Source: Mesoplasma entomophilum
GTDB lineage: Bacteria; Bacillota_I; Bacilli_A; Mycoplasmatales; Mycoplasmataceae
DNA: 64,000 bases
Direction: 5' to 3'
NCBI RefSeq assembly: GCF_002804125.1
Contig: NZ_CP024966.1
Location: forward strand, 558,001 to 622,000
The stretch's first letter is position 1; every line of letters starts with the position of its first letter. The position numbers and the translations under genes are program-made. Shown here piece after piece: positions 8,984-35,354 of the stretch. Below the pieces are notes generated by a model. It saw only the letters and a list, made by a program, of their open reading frames with translations. It was not told where the DNA came from and made no database searches.

Positions 8984-8998
8984 AAAAATATAATTATA

Positions 8999-10447: not shown

Positions 10448-10468
10448 TAGTATCCTTTCTTAATATAA

Positions 10469-10495: not shown

Positions 10496-10524
10496 CAAAG
10501 TTATTTTTGATAAACCATTTCTTA

Positions 10525-10761: not shown

Positions 10762-10779
10762 AATCTTTTATCTTTCTAT

Positions 10780-12369
10780 TTAATCAACTATAGGAATTTG
10801 TTGAAGTAAAACGTTTAATACTCTATTTGCAGCTTTATAGTTGCCATCATTATTTTTAGTTAAAAATACGACATAATAGCTAACATTTTGAGTATTTTCA
10901 ATTGTTTCTCTAGTCAATGCGTTAGTTGAGGAAACAAACTCATTTAGTGATTTAGTTTGCCCTAAAACGCTTTCAATATTTTTATTTAAATTTTCTTGAG
11001 TTTTATCAAAGAATAAAATTTCATCAACTTTAAATAGACTTTCACTTGCATCAGAACCATAGTTAAATGCAGTTGTATTTGTAAAATATTGAGTATTAAC
11101 AAATTTAGCTATTTTTTCATCCTTATCTTTGCCAGTAAAAATATTTAAACTTTCTACAAATTGTTTTTGTTGATGTTTATCATTTTCTTGGTTTCATTCT
11201 TGGGTAATTTGTTGACTTGTTAAGTATTCTTTTTGAATCTTACTTGTATTAACAGCTGAATTAAATTGAATGAATTGTGGTTCAATATATTTTTCATCTT
11301 TACTTGTCAAAACATGCCATTTTAAAGGATTTGATTCTATTTTCAATATTTCAATATCTGTTTTTATTTTATGCTGTTCATTTTCAATTACTTCTTTTGA
11401 AAATTCATAACCAACAGATGCTTTTAAGTTGACACTTACTTGATTTGTTCAATACATTGAATTAATATTTGCATCGCTTTCAGTTATAGCTGAATTAGTA
11501 ATGCTTTCAATTGCAATTTGTTCATTTGCTAAAATTTCTTTTTGTTGAGACAAAAGCTTATTTTTAAAATCATTATAATCGCTAAATTTTTGACCTTTAA
11601 TTCAATTATTTATTAACTCAGTTGTTTCGGTTATAACCTTATCTTCTATAATAACTGAATCTACAATTGTTCCTTCGCATGTAAATTCTTTATCTTTTTC
11701 AGTAACATCATCATCAAATTCATAGTATTCGGAATCATTATTTTTAATTCCAATGGTTCCAGTAACTTTAAATTTTGTAAATTTTGGAATTGATGGGTCA
11801 GTTGGTTGAGTTGTTTCAAGAATTGTAACCGTAACAGTTTTAAACACTACACCTTCAGCAGGAGTCCCTGGGATATTAGCATTTGGTACAAATGTATTTT
11901 TAACAACACTTTCACTTTTAAAATAAATTGTATCTAAAAAGTTTTGTAATCCTTTTATTGTTGTAGCTAATTCTTCTTGAGTTATTTTTTTCTTAGGTGC
12001 TGGCTTATTTCCACCAAAATTATAAATTAAAGTTATTTCACCTGTGTATTTATAATTATTTTTTGAAGTTCCATTACCAATAAATACAATACTCTGTTGT
12101 TTATTGGTAATTGTTCCCTCCTCTATTTCATTGTTGACTTTTACACTAACTCCACCAGCTACATCAACCTTTTGGTTAACAAGTTCTGCTTCCAGCGCGT
12201 CATTAGTTCAAGGCTCTTGATCATTTTCTTTACTATGTAATATTGTTGTCAAAAATCTTTCAATTGAATTAATATTTTGTTTTTTGGTTTCAGTAGAACA
12301 AGAGACAACAATTGTTGATGCTGAACTTGTAACTACTAAAGTTGATAGCGCTAATAATAATTTTTTCAT
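10780..12369 (-). CDS. Cassette lipoprotein, 529-residue type (cassette A)
   Basis: 529 residues. Signal [17 protein letters not shown] with lipobox IVVSC and a GGAGG ribosome site. Visible parts: a ~90-residue domain ending NNYKYTGEITLIYNFGG, a PAPKKK linker, a second domain (FKVTGTIGIKNNDSEYYEFDDDV), a helical middle and a C-terminal domain ending NVLLQQIPIVD. The YTGxITL motif resembles the strand signature of the unlinked lipoproteins at 2985-8674. No protease or hydrolase motif. The cassette B homologue has exactly the same length, so purifying selection on length is likely. Role unknown; probably part of an extracytoplasmic complex with the permease. Confidence 0.8.
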
Positions 12370-12399
12370 TTTTCAGCCTTCCTCCTATTTTTTTATTTA

Positions 12400-14442
12400 C
12401 TAAATTCTTTCAATAAATGTGTATCTACCTTGGCTTCTTCAGTCAAATGTGTCAGATTTTATTTCAAAATTTAGTAAATCAGATTGAATTCCAAATGATA
12501 AAGAACAGTTATCTGATGTTTGAAATGTTAAACCTTTTAATAAAGTATCTCCATATGCACCAGTATATGTTTCATCAGCGAAACCTGCAACTCTTTGATA
12601 TCTTGATTGTCCTTTTCCGTAGTCATTATATCTGACATTAAAAGTTGAGATACCGCTCATTTTTGAAATTAAATTAAGTTCCTTAATTTGTTGAGCTTCA
12701 ACTCCAATATTTAAACTTAGTGCATCAGTCAATTGTTCATCATTAATTTTTCCATTAACTGCTCCAGTTTCTTTTAAATAATCTCAAATATTAAAATCTG
12801 TTCCATCTTCTTTTTTAACGCCTGTTTCTCCACTCATTTTAAATTTATTTCTCAATTGATTTCGTGAAGCTGTTGCATTTGATCAAATGTCACTTTCTTC
12901 TATACCATAGAAACTATGGAAGACATTTAACATTTGTTCGATTCCTTTATAGTAAGCATTAAAAATTGAAGAAACTGATGCGTCACTTTTTTCTGATAAT
13001 GCAGTTGCATTGTTGTTAATTGCTAAAGAATATGTAAAAGAAACATCGCTTAATCTTTGACTATAACCATTTGCTAATGATATTTGTAAACCTTTAGCTG
13101 TTAATTGTTCACTTGAAATTGACATATCAAGTAAGTCTTGAGTTTTTTCAGACTCTGGAATATCTTGATTTGTATTTTGTGTTCTATCTTTGTATTCTTG
13201 TTTAATTAATTCATTATATTTTGAAAGTGAGTTTGTTCATTCTTTTTCTAAGGCACTATATAAAACAGAATCTCCTGCAACTGTTTGGCCTTGCAATTTT
13301 ATTTGAGAATCGGTTTTTACTTTTCCAAATACTGTATTTCATTCTTGTCAACCATTAATTCCTGGATTGTCAGTTGTTGTAGTAGCACCACCTGCATCAA
13401 AACTTCAATTTATAGATCCTGAATTGTTTAAATGCCCTGTTTGTTCATGTCTAATTACATCATTTTCATTATAATAACCAACATTAATTGCATTCACAAC
13501 AGCTGAACTAGTACCTTTAAAATATTTATCTTTAACTATTGTAGTTAAAGATTTAGCAAATTTTTCATTGTATTTATTTATTGCTGATTTATATACATCA
13601 GTATTAGCTGTTAATAAATCTTGTGTTGTCAAAGTTGGTTCAAGTGCTTTTAATGTTGCAAAATCAACATAAACATTTGAGTTTGCTTCTTTTAGCATAT
13701 CTCCAGCTAATTCATTACTAATTTTATTAATTGAAGCAATAATTTCACCATTATCTGAAACAGTAATAACAATTGTTCCTTTTACAGCTTTTGTAACTGT
13801 TGCTTGTTCTGCATCTTTATATCTATATGTTGAAGAAAAGTTTAAATTAATACTTGAAATAAAACCTTCACCTGCAGCTCCTGTATTACCAAAAGTCATT
13901 TCAGCATTTTCATAATCAAATTTAAGATCATCAATTCATTTTGATCCAAAACTTCCAATTAAAATACTATATGTTGAAGTACTAATAGCATTTCTTAAAT
14001 CTGCCATTGCTTTAGCTGGGCTTAATAGTGATTCAACATTTGATGTTAAATCTTTTAGTTGATCATCTGTTAAAACATTATAAAACTTAACTACCTGTTC
14101 ATCTGCATATGTTGAAGTTTTTTTGGTTGCTTCACCACCACTTTCGCCACTTGAAGCTTTTTCATAAATTGACTTTAAATTATCTTCTTGAAAGAAAATT
14201 AAACCATTTTTTGAAGCTTCTGTGTCTAATAATGTTGATCTTGTTGCCATCGGAGATGAAACAATTGTTGAAAATTTAGCTTGAACTTCAGCTTCAAATT
14301 GTCTAATCAATTGTCTTATTGCTTCTTTTTCTTTATCTCCCTCTCCTGGGTCTGGATTTCCTTTGTCACCACAGGAAACTACTGTCATTGCTGAAGTACC
14401 AACAACAGCCATTGATGATAAAGCCAATAATAATTTTTTCAT
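12400..14442 (-). CDS. Cassette lipoprotein, ~680-residue type, second tandem copy (A2)
   Basis: 680 residues, joined across several UGA Trp codons. Signal [17 protein letters not shown], lipobox TVVSC. Residues 1-335 are nearly identical to the gene upstream (14471-16516), while the rest differs widely. Conserved landmarks: a strand-rich core ([12 protein letters not shown]...[14 protein letters not shown]), later [17 protein letters not shown], and the C-terminal end RYTFIERI. The same landmarks occur, more weakly, in the 622-residue lipoprotein, so all belong to one family. No enzyme motif seen. Confidence 0.8.
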
Positions 14443-16516
14443 AATTATTTCCTTTCTTATTTTTTACTTATTAAATTCTTTCAATAAATGTATATGTACC
14501 TCATGATTTAATATCGAATCTTTTACCTTTACCGAAAGAAACGTCAATTAAATCAGTTGAAATTCCAAAGCTTAAACATGAATTGTTACTTGTAGACATT
14601 GTTAAACCTTTCATTAACAATGTTCCATCATTTCCTGTATAAGATGAATCTGCGATTGATGCACTTCTTACATTTCTGTAGTTATGTTGCTGATTAACCT
14701 TACTCATATCTGAGTAAGTAAAGTTGAAGTAAGTAATACCTTCTGCTTTTGCTATTAAGTTTTGTTCTTTAATTTGCTGAACCTCAGGTGTTCCGTCAAC
14801 ACTTGTATTTAAACTTAGAGCATCTGCAAAATTAGTTGGATTAATTTTTCCATTTACTGCTCCAGTTTCTTTTCAATAATCTCAAATATTAAAATCTGTT
14901 CCATCTTGTTTTTTAACACCTGTCTCACCTGACATTTTAAATTTATTTTTTTTCTGTTGTATTGAAGCATTTGGTGATGTTCAAATATCGCTTTCAGAAA
15001 TTCCATAAAAGTTATGGAATGTATTTAACATTTGTTCAATTCCTTTATAATAAGAACTAAATATTTTTGATGTTTCTGCTGAAGTTGTTTCAGAAAGTGA
15101 TGTTGCATTATTGTCAATAGCAATAGAGTATGTAAAACCAATATCGCTTATTCTTTGAGTATATCCATTTTGTAATGAGATAGTTAAACCCTTATTTGTA
15201 ACTGTTTCACTTGAAATTGACATAGCCAATAAATCAGCAGTTCTTTCATTTTCATTGATGCTTGATTTTTCAATTCTTCTTTCATATTCACTTATTAATT
15301 TTTTATTGTAATTTTCTAAAACTTCTTTTCATTGACTTTCAATTGAGTTATATAAAACTTCATCTCCGCTTACTCTAGCGCCTTCTAATTGCAATGTATC
15401 AGTTGTTTTAACTTTTCCAAAAAATGTATTTCATTCAGGTCATGAAAGTCCTTCAAGTTCTGTTCCATCATCAAATTCAACACTAATTTTTCCAGTATTG
15501 TTAAAATGATTTGTTTGTTCTTGTCTAATGACATCATTTTCATTATAGTAACCAACATTAATTGCATTCACAACAGCTGAACTAGTACCTTTAAAATATT
15601 TATCTTTAACTATTGTAGTTAAAGATTTAGCAAATTTTTCATTGTATTTATTTATTGCTGATTTATATACATCAGTATTAGCTGTTAATAAATCCTGAGT
15701 TGTCAAAGTTGGTTCAAGTGCTTTTAATGTTGCAAAATCAACATAAACATTTGAGTTTGCTTCTTTTAGCATATCTCCAGCTAATTCATTACTAATTTTA
15801 TTAATTGAAGCAATAATTTCACCATTATCTGAAACAGTAATAACAATTGTTCCTCTTACAGCTTTTGTAACTGTTGCTTGTTCTGCATCTTTATATCTAT
15901 ATGTTGAAGAGAAGTTTAAATTAATACTTGAAATAAAACCTTCACCTGCAGCTCCTGTATTACCAAAAGTCATTTCAGCATTTTCATAATCAAATTTAAG
16001 ATCATCAATTCATTTTGATCCAAAACTTCCAATTAAAATACTATATGTTGAAGTACTAATAGCATTTCTTAAATCTGCCATTGCTTTAGCTGGGCTTAAT
16101 AGTGATTCAACATTTGATGTTAAATCTTTTAGTTGATCATCTGTTAAAACATTATAAAACTTAACTGCTTGTTCATCTGCATATGTTGAAGTTTTTTTGG
16201 TTGCTTCACCACCACTTTCGCCACTTGAAGCTTTTTCATAAATTGACTTTAAATTATCTTCTTGAAAGAATATTAAACCATTTTTTGAAGCTTCTGTGTC
16301 TAATAATGTTGATCTTGTTGCCATCGGAGATGAAACAATTGTTGAAAATTTAGCTTGAACTTCAGATTCAAATTGTCTGATTAATTCTCTAACTGCTTCT
16401 TTTTCTTTATCTCCCTCTCCTGGGTCTGGATTTCCTTTGTCACCACACGAAACTACTGTCATTGCTGAAGTACCAACAACAGCCATTGATGATAAAGCTA
16501 ATAATAATTTTTTCAT
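13405..16516 (-). repeat. Tandem duplication of the ~680-residue lipoprotein gene
   Basis: 13405-14442 and 15480-16516 are nearly identical DNA with a spacing of 2,074 bp. Identity falls sharply 5' of 13405 and 5' of 15480 on the plus strand, that is, in the C-terminal coding halves. This pattern fits gene conversion limited to the N-terminal part or selection for variable C-termini. Confidence 0.8.
14471..16516 (-). CDS. Cassette lipoprotein, ~680-residue type, first tandem copy (A1)
   Basis: 681 residues. Signal and lipobox as in A2 ([23 protein letters not shown]), ribosome site AGAAAGGAAA. The N-terminal ~335 residues differ from A2 at only a handful of positions. The C-terminal half carries the family landmarks [17 protein letters not shown] and TYTFIERI in a divergent background. 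It follows the permease gene by 18 bases. Cassette B has a single member of this type (26663-28657). Probably displayed on the outer face of the membrane; function unknown. Confidence 0.8.
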
Positions 16517-16534
16517 AATAATTTCCTTTCTTTT

Positions 16535-18349
16535 TTAGAAATCAAATTTTCTAAATTTATATAAAGCTATTGAAAAACTCAATATGCTTATTGCAAATAA
16601 AATAACCAAATAATATCAAGGTTTAATATAATTTGATGTAGTATTTTTTTCTATCATATTAGTAGAAGTAAGTTTTATATCATATTCTGGATAACCTAAA
16701 AATAAATTCTTTTGATCTTCTAGATAAATCTTTGAAAAAGAATTTGGTGAAAATCAGATATCGTTATTATAAAATCCTAGGTTTTTGGTATAAACCATTC
16801 ACAACCCACTATACAAATTGAAATAAGATAGGCCACGCATCATGCTTCTGCCTTTGATATAAGTATTTCAGTCTCCTGATGTTTTAGATACCGCATTTGA
16901 AGACATAATTATGTAATTACTTGAATATTTAATAAAATATTCTTCAATGACTCTAGCTGAGTACATTAAATTAAAGTTTAATTGTTTTTTAACTAAATCA
17001 TTTGCATTTGTAAATCTGAAACCATCATTTCGGATTCCCGCAATTGAATATTCATATAATGAAACAACATCTTGTTTTTTCAAAGCATAAGTTACTTTGT
17101 TATCTTCTATTTCTTCTTCAGTTGGATTAAGTTTTTCTAAATAACTTTTTTCAATTCCTGAATCTAAAAACAAGAAATCATAAAATAAATCATACTTTTC
17201 AAATTGAAGTTCATTGCTAAAATATTTATTAATTTCATTTGTAAAACTTCTAAATTCTACTAGAATATTTTTTGTATTTTGGTCTACTGTTTTATTAATT
17301 AATTCATCTAATTGCTCATTTGTTATAAAAGTATCTTTTAAAGTTATTTGAATATTAAATTGATCATTAATTTTTCAAGTATCTGGAACAGATGTATCTC
17401 TAAGAGGTTTTGTAAATAAATTCAAATTGGTTTCTGTAATAGCAATTGGATTAGAATTTATAAGACCTAAATCTTTTCACATCTGAATTCTATAATTTAT
17501 GTTTGTTGAGTTATGAAATTCATCCGCTACCATTTCTTTTGAAAGAAAATAGTTGTAAACATATTTAGATAAATGTGGGTATTTAATATTTCCATCATTT
17601 ACATGATCATATAAGCTGTAAGCGTCATATATATCGTTTAACTGAAAAATATCACCGTTTGTAAATTGCACGTAATAACTTTTTTCATTTGCTTTTATAA
17701 AAGACATGGGGATATTAGCTATGAATGATAATGCTAGTAATAATGTACAAATAATAGTAGTAGTTTGCAATGTAAATATAAAAATTAAAAATGTAATAAA
17801 GTTAATTAAAAAGAATGTTGCAAGTAAGCAATATATAACATACATCGATGTCATTCTAAGTATGAATACATCATAATGAAACAATGTAAACGTTGCGTAA
17901 AATATATTTATAACAATAAAGCTCATTAAAATATTTACAGCACAAATTAAAATGATTAATAAATATTGAGCTATAAAGAACTTTGTTCTGCTTACCTGAT
18001 TAGTTAAAACAATATATGTTGTTTTATCTTCAAAATTTTTGTTAAAGAAAAATTGAATCATTCTTAAAATAAATACAAACATTAAACAACAAACAAAGAA
18101 TAATATATAAAAGTTAAATATTACAACTTGCGAACTTCCTGATTTTACAAAAGCTAATATAATTCCAACTAAAATTGAAATAACAATAGTTGCTAAGTTT
18201 AAAATATAAAATAATTTTTCCTTTAGTAAACTTTTGAAACTAAATTTCATCAACTTAATGAAAGGGATTCTCCTATATTTAATAAGTTTTTCTTTTATAA
18301 AATTTTGGAAGGGATTTGTCTTCTTTTTTTCATAATTTTCTTCTACCAT
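16535..18349 (-). CDS. ABC-2-like permease with a ~360-residue ectodomain (cassette A)
   Basis: 604 residues, with a textbook ribosome site (AAAGGAGGTGA). A charged N-terminus is followed by five TM segments at about 45-68, 76-99, 121-150, 165-190 and 192-215. Then comes a ~360-residue soluble region rich in aromatic and charged residues (from MSFIKANEKSYYVQF) and one last TM at ~577-600, with the tail LYKFRKFDF. The order fits an ABC-2 or FtsX-like transporter half whose big loop lies outside. It sits in the same operon as an ABC ATPase, which should energise it. Substrate unknown. The cassette B copy has the same length and is closely similar over the TM part. Confidence 0.75.
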
Positions 18350-18384
18350 AGTACCTTCACCTCCTTTCGATGTAATTCACTAAA

Positions 18385-20253
18385 TTAAATAGACTCTATT
18401 AGCGTTCTTTCAAATCAATAAAATTTTTCAGATTGGATTTCAAAACTTAAGTTTAAAAAAGCTAGATTAAAATCGACTGAAAGATTACTTGAACCTTCTT
18501 TAAATTTTTTAAAAATAAGTTGATTATTAGTCATTTCAATTATTGGAATATTTTGTAATTCTTCACTGTTGTTAAATTGAAAATGAAATGATGAAGTATT
18601 GGTTTTATTTAAAAAACTTTGACGTTCTGTTTCTGCTGAATAAGTTAATCTATTATTAAGCAAACTAAGCTGAGCATTTACATCAGAAATACTTTTATCA
18701 TTAGTATTCGCAACTTTAGCTTGCAAAATGTTTAAGTCTTTTAAACTAATCAATTGTTGATTGTCTGACAAAGACTTTCATGTTGTTTTGCTTGTTCCAT
18801 AGGTTTTTTGAAAAACCTCTAGAGCATTTATTGTGTTTTGATAAATTGCTTTAAAAATTGGATCTTGATCAGCTGAAACTATTTTTGTTTCAACTATTTC
18901 GTTTTTACTATTTAAATAACTGTCATTAATGTTATTTGCTGATATTGCTACATAATATGAGATTGGACTAATTGGATGATAATAATTAAATTCATTAAAA
19001 TATAAACAGAAGTTGTTCAAAGTTATTTCTCCATAGTTAACTATCGAATCAGAATTAATATTAAGTTCTTGACGAAACCTGGTTTGAAAATCACTTACTC
19101 ATGTTTTATGTTCTTTAATTAAATAAGCATAAACATCCCTATTTCCCTTTTCAGATTTATTTTCTAAAACAATTTCATCATCTTTTATTAGTTCACTAAA
19201 AATTGTTTTAAATAAATTTATGTTAGTTGTATTGGTTGTTGATACTGTATCATCAAGTATTAACTGATTAGAACCATATTTGCTTTCATGTGGATTGAAG
19301 CTATCAATTTTGTCAATAGATTTAAAATTTTTAAATCTATTTTCGTCTTTAAAAGCAAAGTTATAACTTTGAGTTGAATTAGCTGATTTAGTATTATACT
19401 TAGAAATATAATTTAATAAGCTTTTTTCAAATTTATCAAATTTAAAAAGATTTTCAAAATCACTATTTGTTAAGTTAAACAATCTTGCATAATCATTTAT
19501 TCTAAGGTCATAAGCATCAAATCAAGCTCACTCAAATTTGTTTTTAATAAGATTTTCTCTTAGCTCATTAGTTGCAAATTTTAAATTTTGTATTATGTCG
19601 TCTTGATTACAAATTGTAATCACTATATCTTCTTGATATTTATTTTTAATTACATTGCTATTGATGTCAGTATATTGGTAAGTAAAAATTAAATCAAAAT
19701 TAACGTTTGCTATATAATTTTTATTTTCCTTATCAAAACTTAAATAACCAAAGTCTATGTTACTAAAATCATAAGACAATCCTTGAAACCACTTTTGCTC
19801 CTCATTTTTAAATTTCAAAATACTTGAGTAAAAACTTAATTCAGGTTTCATTGAACTCAAAATTGTTTCTTCTAATTTACTGTTTTTTGTAATTATATTT
19901 AAATCATTAGTCAAAGCTTCTTTTTCTCTTTGAGACAAAAGATCATAATTCAAAGCTAAATTTTGATTTTGCTTGCGTAAGTTTATCTCTTGTAAATTAG
20001 ACTGATTAAAAAAATCAAAATTTTCACGTTGTTGCATTGCTTGATCAATATAAATAATTTCATTTTGTTTTTCAGCTAATGCATTATGAAATATTGTTTC
20101 AACTTTCTGTTCAAAGGATTCGCCAAGAACATAGTAGTTATATATTGGTTTATATTCTTGTTTACCATCTTTTGGCTTTTTGCCACAAGCAGTGGTCATT
20201 AAACCAAAACTTAAAACAAACATAAAAGCAATTGGTAATATTTTTTTTAACAT
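18385..20253 (-). CDS. Cassette lipoprotein, ~620-residue type (cassette A)
   Basis: 622 residues in one frame with UGA Trp. Signal MLKKILPIAFMFVLSFG, lipobox MTTAC. It lies 13 bases after the ATPase-coiled-coil gene. Distant kinship to the ~680-residue lipoproteins is visible in order: IFTYQYTDINSNVIKNKYQE for [12 protein letters not shown]..., ALEVFQKTYG for [10 protein letters not shown], and the closing LSFEIQSEKFYWFERTLIES for [12 protein letters not shown]...FIERI. No catalytic motif seen. Probably an extracytoplasmic partner of the permease. Confidence 0.8.
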
Positions 20254-20266
20254 TTTTATTGAAGAC

Positions 20267-23137
20267 TTATTTGTTAAATTTTTGCATTAGCAGTACATCA
20301 TTTAATTTGTTTTTTTCTTCTTGTATTTCACGTCTAATTCTTTCAAGTTCTAAAACATTTTCGCGTTGCTTCATTTCGCTATCAAATTTAGCTAATTTTT
20401 GATTCATTTCTTTCTCAAAAATCATTTCTTTTCTTAATTGTTCAAAATATTCTTTTTCTTTATTTAAATCGGATTTAATTTTTTCTAACTCTTGATCTTT
20501 TAATAAAGCTGCATTTTGTTGATGTCACATTGGCTGTTGCATATTGTGATCAAAACAATTATTTAAATCTTGTTGAAAGCGTGCATATTTTTTCATATTC
20601 TGTTGTTCATTGATTTTGTATTTTAGTTTCTCTAATTCTTCCTTTAATTTTGAGATTTCAAGATTATATTCTTTAATACTTGATGAATTTTCATTAATTA
20701 ATTCAACTTTTGTATCTATACTATTTTGAAGTGTATTAATTTCACTATATTGAGATTCCAATTTTTTTTGCTTTGATTGAGTTGAAATATTCTCAGTTTC
20801 AATTTTAGCTAATACTGCACTTTGAGTTTCTTTTAATCTTCTCAGTTCTTCTTCAAGTTCAGCTTTTGATTCATTAATTTCACTTGATTCAATTTGAATT
20901 TGTGACATAAATTCTTTTAGTTCAGAAATGCTGTTTTTGATTGATTCTTTTTCTGCGGAAGCTGTCTTGTTAAATTCATCATGATATTCTTTAAATTCTT
21001 TAATTTTTTCTAAGTACTCAGCTTTTGATTCTTGAATAACTTGTGTTTCTGCATTAATGTTTTCAACATATGTTTTTAAATCTATAAGTTTATTTGTAAA
21101 CTCAGCTTTGATTGAATCAATTTCTTCATATTCAACAATTGTTGCAACAGCAATATCTTCTTGTATTTTTTTCAATTCATCAAGTTTTGCATTTAACTCA
21201 AGTTTTTTCATTTCAACTTCTTCTTGTTCTAAATCAACTTCTGTTAAAAACTCTTCTCTACTTTGTTTTAAAGCGCTCAAGTCCTTGTCTAATGCATCTC
21301 TTGAGCTATTAATTTCATCATTTTCAATTTGAATTTGAGTTAGATAACTTTTGAAATCTTTTATTTCTTCTTCAATGATTTCCCTTTGAACAGCAACCAA
21401 GTCTTTAAATTGATTTTCAAATTGTTTGAACTCATTCATTTTTGATTCAATTTCAGAAGATAATGAATTTTCAGATTCCATTTTAACTTTTTCAATATAA
21501 TTTTTTAAGTCTTCAAGCTTATTTGAAAATTCAGCTTTCACTAAATCAATTTGTTCATATTCATTTGCTGAAGTTAAACTAATTTCATCTTGCAATGCTT
21601 TTAATTCATCAATTTTAATTTGTAAATCTGTTTTTTTAAATTCTAAATCTTTAGTTTCAGCTTCTGTTTGTTCTAAAAGTACTTTTAAGCTAGTCGCTTG
21701 ATCTTCAAATGTTGTTTTTACTTGATGAATAATTTCTGATTCTAGTTTAATTTTGGCAAAGTAATCTTTTAAGTCATCAATGTTTAAATCAATTTCAGTT
21801 TTTTGTTCAGTTACAATTTTATTTATTTCTAATTTTAAATTTTTAAGTTCTTGTACTTTGTCAAAAAAATCATTTTTAATTGTATTTATTTCTGATGCTG
21901 TTAAAACATTTTCGCCAACATAGTTTGGATCATTTAAAACTAATGTTTCATGAGTTTTAGCCGATGCCTCAGATAAATCATCGCCTATCAATACAAGGTC
22001 ATTTGATAAACCAACTTTTATTTCATCTTCGCCTAAATCTAAAATGTTTTTGTATTTATCTTCTATTTTGTTTAAGAATTCTAATGCTTTACCTAAATCA
22101 ACAGATTTATTTGAATTATCAATTACAAATTCTTTTAGTGGCTCATATTTTGGCTTATGTGGCTTTTCTTTATCTTCTAATGCTTTTGAGATAGCATCCA
22201 TATTTATAGCTTGTGCTACAACATCTTTTGGTTGCAAATGATTTTTTTCTAAAATAGCTAAAGCATCGTTAAAAGTTTGATGCTCGTTTAAACCAATAAC
22301 CAATGAGTTAGTACTTAAGTCAAATTTAAACGTCAAAATATTATGTTGATTTAAAAGTTTTTCAACTTCTGCTAGTACAACATCTTTTTCAAATGAAACA
22401 TTTATTTTTTTGTATAAGTTTAATTCAGATTTTGATCCAGAAAATAATAATTTACCTTTTTCTAAAATTACAAAATTTTCAATTATATTATAAACTTCAT
22501 CAATATTATGAACTGTTAGTATAATTGTGCTATTAAATTCTTCTTTGAACTCTTTTAATATTTTGTAAGTTTGCCCTCTTCATTTAGAATCTAAGTTTGC
22601 CCCTGGTTCATCTAAAATAAGAATTTCAGGTTCTTTAATAAAACATAAAATTAAATTCATACGGTTTTTCATTCCTCATGAAAATGCATTTAAAGGTTTA
22701 TCTTTAGATGTTCATAAGTCAAATTTTTTTAATCAATATTCAATTCTTGATTTAACTAATGTTTTATCTAAACCCATAACATTACACATATTGTATAAAA
22801 AGTCATAAGCTGTAATTGAATATAGCGAAAAATCCATTTGAGAATAAAACCCTACATTAGAGTTATTTTCAATTGAACTGCTTTTTTTACGTTCCTTACC
22901 ATTAATATAAATATTCCCATCATAATTAAGAGTAGCTCCAAGTAATGAGTTTAAGAATACACTCTTACCTGATCCACTACTTCCAAGCAATGCTGTAACT
23001 TTTCCTTTTTCTATATTAAAAGAAAATGGACCTATATTTATATCTTTAAATTTTTTATGAAAATGGTCTACCATCACAGCATTATTATTTGAATTTTCTA
23101 AAATAATACGCTTTGATTTTAAAATATTTTTTTCCAT
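20267..23137 (-). CDS. ABC-2-type ATPase fused to a ~530-residue coiled coil (cassette A)
   Basis: 956 residues. Residues 1-~215 are an ABC ATPase: Walker A LLGSSGSGKS, Q-loop FYSQMDF, Walker B ILILDEP, D-loop NLDS, H-loop TVHNIDE. The signature reads FSWGMKNRM, with Trp (TGA) where LSGGQ has its first Gly (GGA). A DUF4162-like domain follows (~215-300). From ~420 to ~870 it is nearly continuous coiled coil with five copies of a (D)LKxYxxxIxxES motif spaced about 88, 51, 92 and 53 residues. The tail is Gln- and Met-rich, then coiled again. First gene of the operon. ABC ATPases of this class normally lack such an arm; it may dimerise or reach a partner. Confidence 0.85.
20859..21031 (-). repeat. 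14-bp direct repeats flanking a 159-bp unit missing from cassette B
   Basis: TCAGCTTTTGATTC occurs at 20859-20872 and 21018-21031, exactly 159 bp apart. In cassette B only one copy is present (33013-33026) and the 159 bp between them is absent, which accounts for the full 53-residue length difference of the two proteins. Confidence 0.9.
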
Positions 23138-23201
23138 TTCGTTTCTCCTATATCACTTTAATAATTTGTTTGATTTGATTTTTAAGTTTTATTTTCCAAA
23201 T

Positions 23202-23218
23202 CATGAGTTAATTGTCAC
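23202..23218 (-). promoter_or_regulatory. Conserved block upstream of the ATPase gene (cassette A)
   Basis: CATGAGTTAATTGTCAC lies about 65 bases before the ATG and matches 35197-35213 upstream of cassette B at 16 of 17 bases, although the DNA nearer the ATG has diverged. It abuts a 16-base A run. It is a candidate promoter element or XRE operator. Confidence 0.4.
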
Positions 23219-23267
23219 AAAAAAAAAAAAAAAACAAGTGTTTTGTCTATTTTGTTGAAAAACACTT
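23219..23267 (-). terminator. Terminator with a 16-T tract upstream of cassette A
   Basis: Stem AAGTGTTTT / AAAACACTT followed on the minus strand by 16 T (A run 23219-23234). It would stop read-through from cassette B. The related site before cassette B keeps the 16-base run (35214-35229), but its stem is poor. Confidence 0.65.
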
Positions 23268-23300
23268 ATTTTTTTTGTCACTCAATAAGTTTGATAACAA

Positions 23301-23327
23301 AAAAAAGAAAGCACTTTTGCCTTCTTT
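23301..23327 (-). terminator. hpt-type terminator after hpt relic B
   Basis: Minus-strand stem AAAGAAGGC / GCTTTCTTT with a 6-base loop and a T run. The stem is identical to that after intact hpt at 35299-35323. With the neighbouring hpt relic this shows that the hpt 3' region was copied here. Confidence 0.75.
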
Positions 23328-23349
23328 GGTTTTTTATATATGCATACTT

Positions 23350-23537
23350 AAATTTTGCATTATTTTTAATTTGTTAATTCATCAGTACATCAATTAGCTT
23401 CAAAAGAAAAAACAAAAAAGTTTTTTAATAATGTATTTTATAATCAAATATAAAATGTTTTGAAATTCCATAACTTTTTAGTAATGATTAATATTAAATT
23501 TATGTTCTGCTAGTTTTTATATAATATTTTTAAAGTT
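23350..23537 (-). pseudogene. Decayed 3' fragment of hpt (relic B)
   Basis: Begins right after the XRE stop. Pieces in shifting frames match the end of hpt in order: LKTLKIL for KSVKIL, AEHKFNIN for TERKVEIQ, GISKHFIFDYKIHY for SIEKHFVIGYGLDY, and ANWCTDELTN for AICDTEKLEN. Frameshifts and stops show that it is not expressed. Together with the hpt-type terminator it makes a complete but decayed hpt 3' end from about codon 127. Alignment by eye. Confidence 0.6.
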
Positions 23538-23777
23538 TTAAGCACTGAAATAAGGAGTTAATAAATCTTGTGGCTCTATTTCGAGACCCTCAATAAATCT
23601 TTGAAAAACTTTAATAGTTATATTTCTTCTTCCTCTTTCAAAATCAGAAATATAATTTTTTGAAATACCACATCTAAAACCAAGTTCCTCTTGAGTTAAA
23701 CCTTTAAGAGATCTAATTTTTTTTAAATTAGCTGCAATTATTAAGATTAGTTGATCTTCTTCATTATACTTTTTCAT
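23538..23777 (-). CDS. XRE-family helix-turn-helix regulator (cassette B)
   Basis: 79 residues. It has the same HTH as the cassette A copy (LKKIRSLKGLTQEELG, CGISKNYISDFERGRR). The recognition region differs only by Ser to Cys, so both proteins may bind the same operator. Its C-terminus runs four residues longer (YFSA) because the stop lies further into the hpt relic junction. It overlaps the HU-domain gene by 14 bases, as in copy A. Confidence 0.9.
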   Translation of the reverse strand: MKKYNEEDQLILIIAANLKKIRSLKGLTQEELGFRCGISKNYISDFERGRRNITIKVFQRFIEGLEIEPQDLLTPYFSA

Positions 23778-24903
23778 TATTTAAACTCTCCTTTAAACCA
23801 TTCAATGACTTAAATTTAATTGCCTTACATGAAGGAACTATTTTTAATTCACCAGATCTTATATCTTTCATTGTTGTTTGCTTAACTGAAACTGTTGAAA
23901 ACTTTGCAAAATTATTAATTTTTATTTCTGAACCTTCTTCAATTAAATTATTTTCCATTAATTCAAATAAACTATCAACAATTATTTTAATTTTGGCTTT
24001 TGTTAATTTAATATCATTATTTATAAAAATAGAATTAATTAGGTCTTTCTTAGTGACTTTGCTTTTTTTTATTACAGATTCTTTTTGCTTCATTTTGCTA
24101 ACCTCATCAATATTAAAATTTTCTGATTGTTTTTTGTCATTAATATCAGCTAAATTATCATATTCACTAATTTTAATTGCTTCATTTTTTGAAGAATTAC
24201 TAAAATAAAAACTTTGATATTTATTTTCTTTTAACTTATCGCCTACTTTTTTCATAAATAAAATCAATTCTTTTTTAGTCATTTCTTCTAAAACTACATC
24301 ATTGACCTCTATATTTTTCAAAATAGCGTATTTTCTAATTTTATAAGCATTTTTGACAAGCTCACTTAAACTTTCTTGAATTAAAACTGATCCATCTGCT
24401 TTTGCTCTTTTTTGCAAAAAAGTCAAGTCGTTATCACTTTCATTATTAATTTCTTCAAAAAATGTTTTATCTTCTTCAAAAAGAGGATATTCATCTATAT
24501 CAGAACTTTCAACTTCTAAAATAATTTTTGCTTCGTCTTTTTGAGTTTTTAATAAAGTTGTAAAATGTTTTTTAGCATTAGGCGATTCGATATTTTCATT
24601 TTTTGTTTTTTTTGTTTTTTTTGTTTTAAATTTAATAATTACAATAATTCAAACAAGTACTAAAACTGGTAAAACAACTAGCAAAATAATATCAGATATG
24701 TAATCAATTATGTTTGGGGTAGTTAAGTTTGTTGGCGGTATTAAAGAAATAGTTTTAAATACTTCTAAAACATCTCTATTATTAACTAGTGCATTTACTA
24801 TTTTCATTGAAAAGAAAATAACTATTGTAATTAAGACAGCAAAAGTGAAAACCAATTTAATTACGATACTTTTTCGCTTTTGATTTCTTTTTTGTTTTTC
24901 CAT
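23764..24903 (-). CDS. Two-TM membrane protein with a C-terminal HU/IHF-like domain (cassette B)
   Basis: 379 residues, the same length as copy A. It runs through the TGA Trp after LPVLVLV. Lys-rich start, TM1 and TM2 as in copy A, a cytoplasmic linker with the insertion-like run KTKKTKKTKN, and an HU-like domain from ~282 (KVTKKDLINSIF...EGSEIKINNFAKFSTV...IVPSCKAIKFKS). The arm motif is DIRSGE, again without the intercalating Pro. The linker is the least conserved part between copies; the TM region and the HU domain are well kept, which argues that both ends matter. Confidence 0.8.
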
Positions 24904-24939
24904 TAGTAACCTTTCTTAATATAAAACCCTTCTTAAAAA

Positions 24940-25024
24940 TGAAGAGTTAACCATCTCAGCATCTAATATTGATACTATAAATTTACCTAATTTAAGTAAA
25001 TTTTTATTTAATTTATTCTGTCAT
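24940..25024 (-). pseudogene. Remnant of the 78-residue gene (cassette B)
   Basis: The start ATGACAGAA and the downstream piece matching NKNLLKLGEFRVSISDAEMINS can still be aligned with 10525-10761. However, codon 4 is a TAA in place of CAA, the first third has an internal deletion, and the 3' part is lost up to the decayed hairpin. It cannot make the protein. Confidence 0.75.
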
Positions 25025-25042
25025 AATCTTTATTTTTTTATT

Positions 25043-26632
25043 TTAATCAACCATAACAACTTGCTGAAATAAAAAATTTAATGTTCTATTCGCAGCTTTA
25101 TAATTACCATCTTTATCTTCAGTTAGGAATACTACATAATAACTAATGTTTTGAGTATTTTTAATAGTTGTTTTAGTTAGTGCTTTACTTGTAGAAACAA
25201 ACTCATTTAGCGATTTAGTTTGCCCTAAAACGCTTTCAATATTTTTATTTAAGTTTTCTTGAGTTTTATCAAAGAATAAAATTTCATCAACTTTAAATAA
25301 GCTTTCACTTGTTTGAGAACCATAGTTAAATGCAGTTGTATTTGTAAAATATTGAGTATTAACAAATTTAGTTATTTTTTCATCCTTATCATCACCAGTA
25401 AAAATATTTAAACTTTCTACGAATTGTTTTTGTTGATGTTTATCATTTTCTTGGTTTCATTCTTGGGTAATTTGTTGACTTGTTAAGTATTCTTTTTGAA
25501 TCTTACTTGTATTAACAGCTGAATTAAATTGAATGAATTGTGGTTCAATATATTTTTTATCTCTACTTGTCAAAACATGCCATTTTAAAGGATTTGATTC
25601 TATTTTTAATATTTTAATATCTGTTTTTATTTTATGCTGTTCATTTTCAATTACTTCTTTTGAAAATTCATAACCAGCATTTGCTTTTAAGTTGACACTT
25701 ACTTGATTTGTTCAATACAATGAATTAATATTTGCATTGTTTTCAGTTATAGCTAAATTAGTAATGTTTTGAATTGCAATTTGTTCATTTGCTAAAATTT
25801 CTTTTTGTTGAGACAAAAGCTTATTTTTAAAATCGTCATAATCATTAAAATTTTTAGCCTCAATTCAATTATTAATTGATTCGGTTGCTTTAGTTATAAC
25901 TTTGTCTTCAATAATAACTGAATCTACAATTGTTCCTTCACAGATAAATGCTTTATCTTGTTCAGTAACATTGTCATCAAATTCATAGTATTCAGAATCA
26001 TTATCTTTAATTCCAATTGATCCATTTAACTTAAATTTTGTAAATTTTGGAATTGATGGGTCAGCTGACTCAGTTGATTTAAGAATTGTAACCTTAACAG
26101 TTTTAAACACTACACCTTCAGCAGGAGTTCCTGGGATATTTGCATTTGATACAAATGTATTTTTAACAACATTTTTACTTTTAAAATAAATTGTATCCAA
26201 AAAGTTTTTTAATCCGGTTATAGTTGTTGTTAATTCTTCTTTGGTTACCTTTTTCTTAGGTGCTGGTTTATTTCCACCAAAATTATAAACTAAAGTTATT
26301 GAGCCTGAATATTTATAAATATTTTTTGAAGTTCCATTGCCAATAAATACAATACTCTGTTGTTTATTTGTAAATGTTCCTTCTTTTATTTCGTTGCTAA
26401 CTTTTACACTAACTCCACCAGCCACATCAACTTTTTGATTAACAAGTTCTGCTTCCAGCGCGTCATTAGTTCAAGGTTCTTGATCATTTTGCTTACTGTG
26501 TAATATTGCAGTTAAAAATCTTTCAATTGAATCAATATTTTGTTTTTTTGTTTTAGTAGAACACGAGACAACAATTGTTGATGCTGAACTTGTAACTACT
26601 AAAGTTGATAGTGCTAATAATAATTTTTTCAT
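25043..26632 (-). CDS. Cassette lipoprotein, 529-residue type (cassette B)
   Basis: 529 residues, equal in length to the copy A protein. Lipobox IVVSC. Close similarity throughout, with the clearest identity in the middle (GTPAEGVVFKTVKVTIL; FTKFKLNGSIGIKDNDSEYY). It differs mostly at charged surface positions. The stop (VVMVD) lies 18 bases before the remnant of the 78-residue gene. Role as for copy A. Confidence 0.8.
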
Positions 26633-26662
26633 TTTTCAGCCTTCCTTTTTATTTCTTATTTA

Positions 26663-28657
26663 TTAAATTCTTTCAATAAATGTATACATACCTAATGAGT
26701 TTCAGTCAAATGTTGAGTCATCTCCAAAAGTGACATCAATTAAGTTTGAAGAAATTCCAAATTTCAATGCTGAGTTTCTTTTTGTTTGCATTGCTAACCC
26801 TTTAATTAAAGCAGTTCCACCAGCCCCAGTATAGTTTCTATCTTTTATATATGCACTTCTTCAATTTCTAAATCCAGTTGTTCCAGCATCTGAATATGTA
26901 AAATTCATATATGTAACACCTGACATTTTTGCAATTAAGTTTTGTTCTTTAATTTGTTGAGCTTCAACTCCTGTGTTTAAACTTAATGCATTAACAAAAT
27001 CATTTTTTTTAATTTCTCCGTTCACTGCACCAGTTTCTTTTAAATAATCTCAAATATTAAATTCTGTTCCATCTTCTTTTTTAACACCAGTTTTACCTGA
27101 CATTTTAAATTTATTCATTTTTTGTTGAGGTGATGCATTTGGTGATCTTCAAATGTCACTTTCTTGTATTCCATAGAATGTTTGGAAAACATTTAATAAA
27201 TTTTCAACGCCTTTGTAGTAAGAATTAAATATTTTTGATTGTGCTGAATCTGTTATTTCAGATAAAGCTGTCGCATTTTTATCAATTGCAATTGAATATG
27301 TAAAACTAACATCACTTAGTCTTTGTGCATAACCATTTGTTAATGAAATAGTTAATCCTTTAATTGTCACTTTTTCACTTGAAATTGACATAGCCAATAG
27401 ATCATTTACTTTTTCATTTTTCTCAACATTTGTTGATTTTTCTGTTCTTTCTGCATATTCGTTTACAATTTTTGAATTATATGCAGTTAATGATTTTTTT
27501 CATTGCCCTTCAATAGCTGCATATAAAGTTTCATCTCCAGCTACTCTATTACCTCTTAATTGAATGTTTTCAGTAGTTTTAACTTTTCCAAGAAAAGTAT
27601 TTCAAGCTGTTCAATCTTCAGAACCATAGTTTAAAGTAATTTTTCCTATATTATTAAAATTGCTTGTTTGTTCTTGTCTAATAATATCGCTTTCATTGAA
27701 GTAACTAACTTTAATAGCATTAACAACAGCTGTACTATTTATGAAATATTTATTTTTCACGATAGAAGTCATTGTTTTAGCAAGGTTTTCATTATACTTA
27801 TTAATTGCTGATTTGTATGCATCTGTATTAGCAGTTATTAAATCTTGTGTTGTTAAACTTGGCTCTAATGCTTTTAATGTTTTAAAGTCAACATAAACAT
27901 TTGAATTTGCTTCTTTTAACATATCACCAGCTAATTCATTATTAATTTTGTCAATTGAAGCAATGATTTCACCATTATCTGAAACAGTAATAACAATTGT
28001 TCCTCTTACAACTTTTGTAACTGTAGCTTGTTCTGCATCCATATATCTATAAGTTGAAGAAAAATTTAAATTAATACTTGAAATAAATCCTTTTCCATCG
28101 TCACTAGTAGCACCATAAGTCATTTCAGCAGTTTCATAATCAAATTTAAGATTATCAGTTCATTTTGAACCAAAACTTCCAATTAAGATACTATATGTTG
28201 AATTGCTAATAGCATTTCTTAAATCTGCCATTGATTTAGCTGGGCTCAATAATGATTCAACATTTGATGTTAAATCTTTTTGTTGTTTGGGTGTTAAAAA
28301 GTCATAAAAATTAGCTGATTGTATTGGAGTTTTAGAGTTTTTTTCACCACCCCTTGTATTGGCTGATGCTTGATCAAAGATTGATTTTAAATTATCTTGT
28401 TGGAAGAAAATCAAGCCATTTTTTGAAGCTTCTGTATCTAATAATGTTGATCTAGTGGCCATTGGGCTTGAAACTATTGCTAAAAATTTTGATTGAACTT
28501 CAGATTCAAATTGTCTGATTAATTCTCTAACTGCTTCTTTTTCATTTTCTTTGTCTTTGTCATCTTTATTGCCAGCTCTATTTGAGCATGAAATAACAAC
28601 CATTGATGAAGCACCAACAACGGCGAATGATGATAATATTAATAATAATTTTTTCAT
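26663..28657 (-). CDS. Cassette lipoprotein, ~670-residue type (cassette B)
   Basis: 664 residues. Signal MKKLLLILSSFAVVGAS, lipobox MVVISC. The N-terminal half is roughly 80 percent identical by eye to A1 and A2, and the C-terminal half is more divergent. Landmarks present: [48 protein letters not shown]. It is the only member of this type in cassette B, between the permease and 529-residue lipoprotein genes. Confidence 0.8.
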
Positions 28658-28693
28658 TTTGTATTTTTTCCTTTTCTTTTTTCAATTTTATTT

Positions 28694-30508
28694 TTAGAAA
28701 TCAAATTTTCTAAATTTATATAATGCTATTGAAAAACTCAATATGCTTATTGCAAATAAAATAACCAAATAATATCAAGGTTTGAGATAATTTGATGTAG
28801 TATTTTTTTCTATCTTATTATTAGAAGTAAGTTCTATATCATATTCTGAATAACCTAAGAATAAATTTTTTTGATCTTCTAGATAAATCTTTGAAAAAGA
28901 ATTTGGTGAAAATCAAATATCATTATTGTAAAATCCTAGGTTTTTGGTATAGGCCATTCACAACCCACTATACAAGTTGAAATAGGACAAACCACGCATC
29001 ATACTTCTGCCTTTAATATATGTATTTCAATCTGCTGATGTTTTTGATACCGCATTTGAAGTCATAATTATGTAATTACTTGAATATTTAATAAAATATT
29101 CTTCAATGACTCTAGCTGAGTACATTAAATTAAAGTTTAGTTGCTTTTTAACTAGATCATTTGCATTCGTAAATCTAAATCCATCATTTCGGATTCCCGC
29201 GATTGAATATTCATAGAATGAAACAACATCTTGTTTTTTCAAAGCATATTTTACTTTATTTTCTTCTACTTCCCTATCAGTTGGATTAAGTTTTTCTAAA
29301 TAACTTTTTTCAATCCCTGAATCTAAAAATAAAAAGTCATAAAATAAATCATATTTTTCAAATTGAAGTTCATTATTAAAATACTTATTAATTTCATTTG
29401 TGAAACTTCTAAATTCCACTAAAATATTTTTTGTATTTTGATCTACTGTTTTTTTAATTAATTTATTTAATTGTTCATTTGTTATAAAAGTATCTTTTAA
29501 AGTTATTTGAATATTGAACTCGTCACTATTTTTTCAAGAATTTGGCACAGATATATCTCTAAGAGGCTTTGTAAATAAATTTAAATTGGTTTCTGTAATA
29601 ACAACTGGATTAAAATTTATAAGTCCCAAATCTTTTCACATCTGCGTTCTATAATTTATATTTACTGAGTTATGAAATTGATCTACTACCATTTCTTTTG
29701 AAAGAAAATAGTTGTAAATATATTTAGATAAATGTGGATATTTAATATTTCCATCATTTACATGATCATATAGGTTGTAAGCGTCATATATATCGTTTAA
29801 CTGAAAAATATCACCGTTTGTAAATTGCACGTAATAACTTTTTTCATTTGCTTTTATAAAAGACATGGGGATATTAGCTATGAATGATAATGCTAGTAAT
29901 AATGTACAAATAATAGTAGTAGTTTGCAATGTAAATATAAAAATTAAAAATGTAATAAAGTTAATTAAAAAGAATGTCGCAAGTAAACAATATATAACAT
30001 AAATTGATGTCATTCTAAGTATGAATACATCATAATCAAATAATGTAAATGCTGCATAAAATATATTTATAAAAACAAAGCTCATTAAAATATTTACAGC
30101 ACAAATTAAAATAATTAATAAATATTGAGCTATAAAGAATTTTGTTCTACTTACTTGATTAGTTAAAACAATATATGTTGTTTTATCTTCAAAATTTTTG
30201 TTAAAGAAAAATTGAATCATTCTTAAAATAAATACAAACATCAAACAGCAAACAAAGAATAATATATAAAAGTTAAATATTACAACTTGTGAGCTTCCTG
30301 ATTTTACAAAAGCTAATATAATTCCAATTAAAATTGAAATAACAATAGTTGCTAAGTTTAAAATATAAAATAATTTTTCTTTCAGTAAACTTTTAAAACT
30401 AAATTTCATCAATTTTGCAAAAGGAATTCTTCTATATTTGATAAGTTCTTCTTTTATAAAATTTTGCAAAATTTTTGTTTTATTTTTTTCATAATTTTGT
30501 TCTGCCAT
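28694..30508 (-). CDS. ABC-2-like permease with large ectodomain (cassette B)
   Basis: 604 residues, the same length as copy A. Five N-terminal TM segments, a ~360-residue outside region and a last TM near the C-terminus. Parts of the TM4-5 coding DNA (about 29850-29970) are identical to copy A, including silent positions, which suggests recent gene conversion. Ribosome site GAAAGGAGG. The start MAEQNYEKNKTK differs from copy A's MVEENYEKKKTN. Confidence 0.75.
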
Positions 30509-30544
30509 TTTACATTCTTCCTCCTTTCAATGTAATTCACTAAA

Positions 30545-32419
30545 TTAGTTGGACTCAATCAATGTTATTTCTGATTTATAAAATTTTTCAGATTTAATTA
30601 CAAAACTTAGATTTAAAAAGGATAGATTAAAATCAATTGAAAGGTTGCTTGGAGCTTCTTTAAATTTTTTAAAAATAAGTTGATTATTGGTCACTTTAAT
30701 TATTGGAATATTTTTTATTTCTTCACTATTGTTGAATTGAAAATGAAATGATGAAGTATTGGTTTTATTTAAAAATTTCTGACGTTCCAATTTTGCAAAA
30801 TAAGTTAAGTTATTATTAAGCAAACTAAGCTGAGCATTTACATCAGAAATACTTTTTTCAATAGTATTTCCAACTTTAAATTGCAAAATGTTTAAACCTT
30901 TTAAACTAATTAGATGCTGATTGTCTGATAAAGACTTTCACGTTGTTTTTCTTGTTCCATAGGTTTCTTGAAAAACCTCTAAAGCATTCATTGTGTTTTG
31001 ATAAATTGTTTTAAAAATTGGATCTTGAACAGATAAAATTATTTTTGTTTTAGCTATTTCCTTTTCACTATTTAAATAACTATCGTTAATGTTATTTGCT
31101 GATATTGCTACATAATATGAAATTGGACTAATTGGATGATAATAATTGAATTCACTAAAATATAAAAAGAAGTTATTTAAAGTTATTTCTCCATAGCTAA
31201 CTATTGAATCAGAATCAATGTCAAGTTCCTGTTTAAATTTAGTTTGAAAATCATTTACTCATTTTTTGTATTCCTTATTTAAATAATCATGAATATCTTG
31301 ATTCCCTTTCACAAATTTATTTTCTAAAACAATTTGATCGTCTGTTATTAATTCACTAAAAATTGTTTTGAATAAATTCATGTTATTTGCATTGCTTGTT
31401 GAAACTGCGTCATCAAAAATTAATTCATTGGAGCCATATTTGTTTTGACGTTCATTGAAATTATTAATTTTATTAATAGATTTAAAACTTTTAAATCTAT
31501 TTTCATCCTTGAAAGCGAAGTTATAATTATAACTTTGTGATGAAATATTTGAACTATTTGTACGTTCTGAAATATAATTTAATAAGCTTTTCTCAAATTT
31601 ATTAAACTTAAATAAATTCTCAAAATCACTATTTGATAAATTAAGTAATCTTGAATAATCATTTATTCTAAGATCATAGGCATCAAATCATGCTCATTCA
31701 AATTTGTCTTTAATAAGATTTTCTCTTAATTCACTAGTTGTAAACTTTAAATCTTCAATAATGTCATCTTTATTAGAAATTGTAATTACTATATTCTGTT
31801 GATACTTATTTTTAATTACATTTTTATTAATGTCAGTATATTGATAAGCAAAAACCAAATCCAAATTGACATTTGCTATATATTTTTGATTTTTTTTGTC
31901 AAAATTTAAATAACTAAAATCAGTGTTTTCAAAATCATAAGATATTCCTTCAAATCATTTTTGATTCTCATTTCCAAATTCCAAAATACTTGCATAAAAA
32001 TCAAATTCAGGTTTTACCAATTCTACAATTGTTTCCTCTAATTTACTTTTACTAATAATTTTATTTAAGTCATTGCTTAGTGCCTGTTTTTGTCTTTGAG
32101 ATAAAATTTCATATTTAGAAGATACATTTTGGTTTTGCTTATGTAAACTTATTTCTTGCAAATTAGACTGAGTGAAAAAGTTAAGATTTTCATTTTGTTG
32201 CATAGTTTGATCAATATAAATAATTTCATTTTGCTTCTTAGTTAATACACTATGAAATTTTGTTTCAACTTCTTTCTTAAAAGAATTTGCAAGAATATAG
32301 TAGTTATATATTGGTTTATATTCTTGTTTAAAATCTCTTGGTTTTTTGCTACAAGCAGTAGTTATTAAACCAAAAATTAGAATAAACGTAAAAGCAATTG
32401 GCAATATTTTCTTTAGCAT
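30545..32419 (-). CDS. Cassette lipoprotein, ~620-residue type (cassette B)
   Basis: 624 residues through several UGA Trp. Signal MLKKILPIAFTFILIFG, lipobox ITTAC. Overall about two-thirds identical to copy A by eye, with conserved landmarks FAYQYTDINKNVIKNKYQ and ALEVFQETYG. Its ATG lies one base past the stop of the ATPase-coiled-coil gene (32421), so translation is probably coupled; in copy A the gap is 13 bases. Confidence 0.8.
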
Positions 32420-32420
32420 T

Positions 32421-35132: not shown

Positions 35133-35196
35133 TTCGCCTCTCCTTATATTATTTAAATAATTTCCTTGATTTGTTTTTAGGTTTCTTTTTTCAAAC

Positions 35197-35213
35197 CATG
35201 AGTTAATTTTCAC
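35197..35213 (-). promoter_or_regulatory. Conserved block upstream of the ATPase gene (cassette B)
   Basis: CATGAGTTAATTTTCAC, followed by a run of 16 A at 35214-35229. It is the counterpart of 23202-23218. The run length matches in both copies (16), which suggests either constraint or common recent origin. Confidence 0.4.
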
Positions 35214-35298
35214 AAAAAAAAAAAAAAAACAAGTCTTTCATGAATTTTAATAAAAAAACACTCAAATTGTTAATCAGCCAATAAGTTAGACATCAAAA

Positions 35299-35323
35299 AA
35301 AGAAAGCTTACAATGCCTTCTTT
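35299..35323 (-). terminator. hpt terminator
   Basis: Minus-strand stem AAAGAAGGC / GCTTTCTTT with a 7-base loop and a T7 tract, ~32 bases past the hpt stop codon. Confidence 0.75.
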
Positions 35324-35354
35324 CATTATTATTTATATACTTATACTAAATTTT

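What the first reader, a model, noticed from the sequence alone, without database searches (positions are those of the whole stretch)
23301..23537. Relic of the hpt 3' end plus hpt-type terminator between the cassettes
Fragments matching hpt from about codon 127 to the end follow the XRE-B stop in the right order, and a terminator with the same stem as that of hpt follows at the right place. Both relics begin at about the same hpt codon and directly at an XRE stop. That fixed junction suggests a specific attachment-like point inside hpt, with the 3' part restored on insertion. No integrase gene is visible in either cassette.
Basis: partly seen in the sequence, partly recalled or inferred. Interest (0 to 1): 0.82.

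Follow-up and report, generated by a model that had tools for sequence, protein, structure and literature searches.

The report
Scars of a replaced hpt gene
In a small insect-associated bacterium (Mesoplasma), each copy of a doubled 12-kb surface-protein cassette ends in the decayed tail of an older hpt gene of different ancestry from today's intact hpt, which points to imported DNA that replaced hpt rather than to a special insertion site.

Summary
Decayed hpt 3' ends, from about codon 127, directly follow both XRE stops (window 23359-23540 and about 8985-9094). They score 112-132 against at most 68 in 200 shuffles each. The sister species G003 has the same arrangement.

The attachment-site reading is not supported:
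- The relics are not copies of the window's own hpt (AU p=0.0007). They resemble the hpt of a relative whose hpt lacks the cassette.
- The intact hpt is the odd one. It conflicts with the species tree even in codons 1-126 (AU p=0.0002), while ruvX next door agrees with that tree. An att-type insertion would have kept the old 5' part.
- The rightmost relics keep remains of old downstream context: a terminator stem found once in this genome and once in that relative (right after its hpt), and a decayed gene that follows hpt in another relative.
- Cassettes elsewhere carry no hpt sequence. This genome has no detectable tyrosine or serine recombinase.

Best account: DNA carrying a foreign hpt plus the cassette came in. 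It recombined by homology near the ruvX end and joined illegitimately to the old hpt at codon ~127. Unequal crossing-over then duplicated cassette and joint. How the cassette reached unrelated sites in other species is open.

The parts
35995..36435 (-). ruvX-like gene; the left homologous crossover is placed in its last ~35 codons (about 36010-36070)
   Evidence: ruvX tree agrees with the species tree (95/98; G000/G003+G002 rejected, p=0.003), but the last codons and the ruvX-hpt spacer share states with G002
35355..35924 (-). intact hpt, discordant with its neighbour ruvX and with the species tree
35295..35330 (-). terminator of the intact hpt (Tcas), shared with the other genomes that have the cassette at hpt
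23538..35294 (-). cassette B: conserved left end, ABC ATPase with long coiled coil (32421-35132), lipoprotein LP2 (30545-32419), permease (28694-30508), lipoprotein LP1 (26663-28657), lipoprotein LP0 (25043-26632), membrane protein with HU/IHF domain (23764-24903), XRE-B (23538-23777)
23359..23540 (-). relic B: decayed hpt 3' end, codons ~128-189, joined at the XRE-B stop
23300..23330 (-). terminator of relic B, of the type of the intact hpt (Tcas)
9094..23299 (-). cassette A: left end with terminator and T16 run (about 23212-23299), ABC (20267-23137), LP2 (18385-20253), permease (16535-18349), two LP1 copies (14471-16516, 12400-14442), LP0 (10780-12369), small protein (10525-10761), HU-domain protein (9308-10447), XRE-A (9094-9321)
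8985..9094 (-). relic A: decayed hpt 3' end, clear hpt homology for codons ~127-165, joined at the XRE-A stop
8967..8981 (-). terminator stem GAAAGCTTAGCTTTC, found once in this genome and once in G001, there right after the intact hpt
8780..8898 (-). remains of the gene that follows hpt in G005 (geneD); clearer in the sister species G003 (G003:C1:540797-541024)

Best explanation
The relics are the surviving 3' end of an older resident hpt that was replaced. In the ancestor of G000 and G003, DNA carrying [end of ruvX - foreign hpt - hpt terminator - lipoprotein/ABC cassette - XRE] entered the cell. One end recombined by homology near the ruvX/hpt boundary; the other end joined illegitimately, at the XRE stop, to codon ~127 of the resident hpt. 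Codons 1-126 of the resident were lost and its 3' end, terminator and next gene were stranded to the right, where they decay because the incoming hpt is complete. Recombination between the two hpt 3' ends, now direct repeats around the cassette, then duplicated cassette plus joint. That gives relic B (old hpt 3' end with the new terminator) and relic A (old hpt 3' end with the old downstream context). Shown: different ancestry of relics and intact hpt, discordance between ruvX and hpt, the common joint in two species, and the old downstream gene behind relic 2. Inferred: that hpt and cassette came in one event, the crossover positions, and the unequal crossing-over.
For: Relics are hpt-derived beyond shuffles. 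Relics grouped with own hpt rejected, p=0.0007; relics with G001 hpt 86/88. hpt of G000/G003 with their species clade rejected, p=0.0007, codons 1-126 alone p=0.0002; ruvX keeps that clade 95/98 (species distances). Terminator stem after relic A found once each in the genomes of G000 and G001. The gene following hpt in G005 has its only match outside G005, among seven genomes, directly behind relic 2 of G003 (E=1.5e-5). Relic B carries the new hpt's terminator. Cassette genes form near-star trees: permease identity G000A-G003 93.1%, G003-G006 93.1%, G003-G002 93.3%, while core genes give 97.8, 93.8 and 90.8%, as expected from horizontal spread. G001, G002 and G005 have hpt without the cassette. 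HFIR makes such joints (PMC3240628); mycoplasma chromosomal transfer gives mosaics with short flanking homology (PMC6819513).
Against: Relics are short (140-210 nt) and decayed. The rooted hpt tree is also explained if G001/G004/G006 received hpt from a G005-like lineage, so which type is vertical is unsettled. The terminator after relic A fits the old type only slightly better than the cassette type (G005 67, shuffle maximum 65; G006 66, P about 0.02). No donor genome was found. Microhomology at the joint is short and decayed. The cassette at hpt in G004/G006, with the same 3' UTR, could mean the ancestor already had it.
Confidence: 0.6

Rival explanations
1. Tandem duplication first, hpt replacement later. 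The ancestor already had old hpt - cassette - XRE. A 12-kb unit from hpt codon 127 to the XRE stop duplicated in tandem, amplified to three or more, and the last unit was cut back to its hpt end. Later the intact hpt alone was exchanged for a foreign allele.
For: Explains the identical joints and the old-type relics. The cassette sits at the same place with a similar 3' UTR in G004/G006. The terminator after relic A cannot be firmly separated from the cassette type.
Against: Needs more steps, including loss of nearly a whole unit. Does not predict the once-per-genome terminator match with G001. Cassette divergence between G003 and G006 is low for their core divergence and near-star, which argues against long vertical residence at hpt.
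Confidence: 0.22
2. One reading: a mobile element inserts site-specifically at hpt codon ~127 and restores the 3' part, like islands in tRNA 3' ends; two tandem insertions left two relics.
For: Both relics start at the same codon next to an XRE stop; three cassette-free hpt loci exist.
Against: Codons 1-126 of the intact hpt are discordant too. No recombinase detected in this genome. Cassettes in G001, G002 and G025 sit elsewhere without hpt sequence. G006 has the cassette at hpt without a relic. The joint lacks the terminator that closes the cassette in G006 and G001.
Confidence: 0.06
3. The whole array, with its old-type relics, formed in another species and moved into the G000/G003 ancestor by recombination in flanking homologous DNA; the intact hpt is the vertical one.
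For: The rooted hpt tree fits a single transfer from a G005-like lineage to G001/G004/G006, leaving G000/G003 vertical.
Against: Needs a further species in which the joint formed. Relic A/2 is continuous with LPx, LPy and TM6401 in native order.
Confidence: 0.12

Closest known systems
Homology-facilitated illegitimate recombination (HFIR) in Streptococcus pneumoniae, Acinetobacter baylyi, Pseudomonas stutzeri (summarised in PMC3240628)
   Same: One side joined by homology, the other by an illegitimate joint, with resident DNA deleted and foreign DNA gained
   Different: Reported gains are about 1 kb on average, here about 12 kb; microhomology here is short and decayed; RecA dependence and DNA uptake untested
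Orphan immunity-gene arrays of Vibrio cholerae T6SS clusters and orphan 3' ends of Rhs loci (PMC5361080)
   Same: Incoming module anchored upstream by homology displaces the resident gene and leaves its 3' part behind, in arrays
   Different: Here the anchor and victim is a housekeeping gene, the left-behind 3' end is dead, and the array is attributed to duplication rather than successive imports
Mycoplasma chromosomal transfer (PMC6819513)
   Same: Mollicutes in which chromosomal fragments recombine into mosaic genomes with short flanking homology
   Different: Shown in matings within Mycoplasma agalactiae; here inferred between Mesoplasma species
Genomic islands in tRNA gene 3' ends (general knowledge)
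   Same: Complete target gene on one side, partial 3' copies on the other
   Different: No integrase, no near-identical direct repeats, 5' part of the target also replaced, other copies at other loci

Membership tests
Site-specific integrative element using a gene 3' end | recombinase encoded by element or host | tested here: not met
   No PF00589 or PF00239 match in G000, G003 or four other genomes; only a 48-aa PF00589 fragment in G001; no recombinase among cassette proteins searched
Site-specific integrative element using a gene 3' end | 5' part of target native, 3' part supplied by the element | tested here: not met
   Codons 1-126 also conflict with the species tree, p=0.0002
Site-specific integrative element using a gene 3' end | same target in other carriers | tested here: not met
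   Cassettes at unrelated loci in G001, G002, G025; clean intergenic insertion upstream of guaA in G001
Site-specific integrative element using a gene 3' end | excised circular form | not testable with these tools
   needs reads or PCR
HFIR-type replacement | homologous crossover on one side | tested here: met
   ruvX body follows the species tree while hpt does not; switch in the last ~35 codons of ruvX
HFIR-type replacement | illegitimate joint with short microhomology on the other side | tested here: inconclusive
   joint CTTAAG against GCTAAG; joint decayed
HFIR-type replacement | resident DNA deleted at the joint | tested here: met
   no second copy of hpt codons 1-126 in the whole genome; the only other match is a distant phosphoribosyltransferase, 32% identity
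HFIR-type replacement | RecA-dependent | not testable with these tools
   experiment
Plain tandem duplication of own hpt region | relics descend from the same gene as the adjacent intact hpt | tested here: not met
   relics with own hpt rejected, p=0.0007

The most novel reading that the evidence does not exclude
The 12-kb lipoprotein/ABC/HU/XRE cassette is a gene cassette without a recombinase of its own that spreads among Mesoplasma species by an unknown mechanism. It has a conserved left end (terminator plus T16 run) and, in some copies, a closing terminator behind XRE. It lies at hpt, upstream of guaA, beside a tRNA cluster and at two further loci.
Probability: 0.3. Interest if true: 0.6.

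Novelty: new member of a known kind. Interest (0 to 1): 0.42.

Why it matters
It shows how a partial gene copy beside a gene cluster can look like an att site and yet be the scar of an allele replacement; comparing the ancestry of fragment, intact gene and neighbour separates the two. It also adds a probable case of interspecies recombination in insect-associated Mollicutes and brings to light a surface-protein cassette at different sites in different Mesoplasma genomes.

Tried and rejected
Plain tandem duplication of the window's own hpt: rejected by ancestry. Integrase-driven insertion: no recombinase, 5' part also discordant. hpt sequence as part of the mobile unit at other loci: no signal above shuffles; the conserved cassette left end starts after the hpt terminator. 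Replacement of the hpt 3' end in G004/G006: suggestive identities, not significant (p 0.09-0.12). Terminator identity of relic A by alignment alone: not decisive. A first bootstrap script failed. The ABC_B row is out of frame because of a wrong start coordinate and was not used. Whole genome as file: not available. Literature: nothing found on this locus.

Full report
Setting. The window is part of an 847,966-base single-contig genome of a Mollicute using code 4. Its genus includes G006, whose contig of 330,035 bases equals that of Mesoplasma grammopterae ATCC 49580. Six other genomes of the genus (G001-G006) were compared. On the minus strand the window reads ruvX, hpt, cassette B (ABC ATPase with coiled coil, lipoprotein, permease, lipoproteins, HU-domain membrane protein, XRE), relic B, cassette A, XRE-A, relic A, then lipoprotein genes.

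Check. Local alignment of the last 70 hpt codons of seven species against the DNA behind each XRE gave 116 (relic B), 112 (relic A) and 132 (G003 relic 1), against maxima of 63-68 in 200 dinucleotide shuffles each; G003 relic 2 gave 69, not significant alone. Starts fall at codons 125-129. The DNA behind XRE in G006, G001 and G002, and the left flanks of the cassettes that lie elsewhere, gave nothing above shuffles. In G006 and G001 the XRE gene is followed instead by a terminator of its own, which the G000/G003 joint lacks.

Ancestry. Each relic scores best, or equal best, with the hpt of G001, a species without the cassette at hpt. A tree of relics and hpts rejects grouping relics A, B and 1 with the hpts of their own genomes (AU p=0.0007) and places them with G001 (86/88). 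Conversely the intact hpt of G000/G003 conflicts with the species tree: leuS+lepA identity G000-G004 93.5% and G000-G002 90.5%, but hpt 79.5% and 84.0%. Grouping it with G001/G004/G006 is rejected for the whole gene (p=0.0007) and for codons 1-126 (p=0.0002), whereas ruvX, 70 bases upstream, supports that group (95/98) and rejects the G002 grouping (p=0.003). The switch lies in the last ~35 codons of ruvX. Caution: the rooted hpt tree also fits a transfer of hpt from a G005-like lineage into G001/G004/G006, so which type is vertical is not settled. That relics and intact hpt differ in ancestry is settled as far as these tests go.

Context of the relics. Behind relic A stands a stem GAAAGCTTAGCTTTC, found exactly once in the G000 genome and once in G001, there right after the intact hpt. 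By alignment alone this terminator is only slightly closer to the old type than to the cassette type. The gene that follows hpt in G005 was searched in all seven genomes: besides G005 itself, the only match is a decayed copy directly behind relic 2 of G003 (E=1.5e-5), with weaker remains at the same place in the window. The rightmost relic thus most simply sits where the old hpt ended. Relic B carries the terminator type of cassette-bearing genomes, as expected if it arose by crossing-over between the two hpt 3' ends.

Relatives. hpt is free of the cassette in G001, G002 and G005; G006 has one full cassette without relic; G004 has two genes of it; G003 has one full and one partial cassette, both with relics. 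Cassettes lie elsewhere in G001 (between an S1-domain gene and guaA), in G002 (beside tRNA genes, plus a second copy) and in G025. The guaA site is a clean intergenic insertion compared with six other genomes. Cassette genes are nearly equally distant between species whatever their core distance, suggesting horizontal spread. No transposase or integrase was found in the cassette proteins searched, and no tyrosine or serine recombinase in the G000 genome.

Mechanism. One-sided homologous import with an illegitimate joint (HFIR, PMC3240628) plus one unequal crossing-over explains the joint, the ancestry, the old downstream remains and the two terminator types. Duplication first and hpt replacement later remains a serious rival. 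A closely similar logic has been proposed for orphan immunity genes in Vibrio T6SS clusters (PMC5361080), and recombination at short homologies is documented for mycoplasma chromosomal transfer (PMC6819513). What moved the cassette to unrelated intergenic sites in other species is not explained.

Noticed in passing
window 23212-23299 and 35210-35294: Conserved left end of the cassette: an AAGTGTTTT...AAAACACTT stem followed by a T16 run, present also at cassettes in G001 and G002.
   Followed up: partly
window 9094-9321, 23538-23777; G000:C1:90477-90701: The cassette XRE genes are close paralogs (about 73-76% protein identity) of an XRE gene present near 90 kb or equivalent in all seven genus genomes.
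   Followed up: partly
L074/L075 (G001:C1:428000-453000): The 12.4-kb cassette is inserted between an S1-domain gene and guaA, where six other genomes have a short spacer.
   Followed up: yes
L171 (G002:C1:395000-412000): A broken cassette: ABC fragments fused near a permease fragment, then an LP1 gene; further cassette decay in G002.
   Followed up: no
window 12400-16516: Cassette A has two tandem LP1 lipoprotein genes (82% DNA identity), one more than cassette B.
   Followed up: no
window 9308-10447 and 23764-24903: Protein with an N-terminal hydrophobic stretch and a C-terminal HU/IHF domain (PF00216, E=4e-16), an odd combination.
   Followed up: no
L074/L075, about 19480-19980: A helix-turn-helix ORF that looks like the start of an IS30-type transposase lies near guaA in G001.
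   Followed up: no
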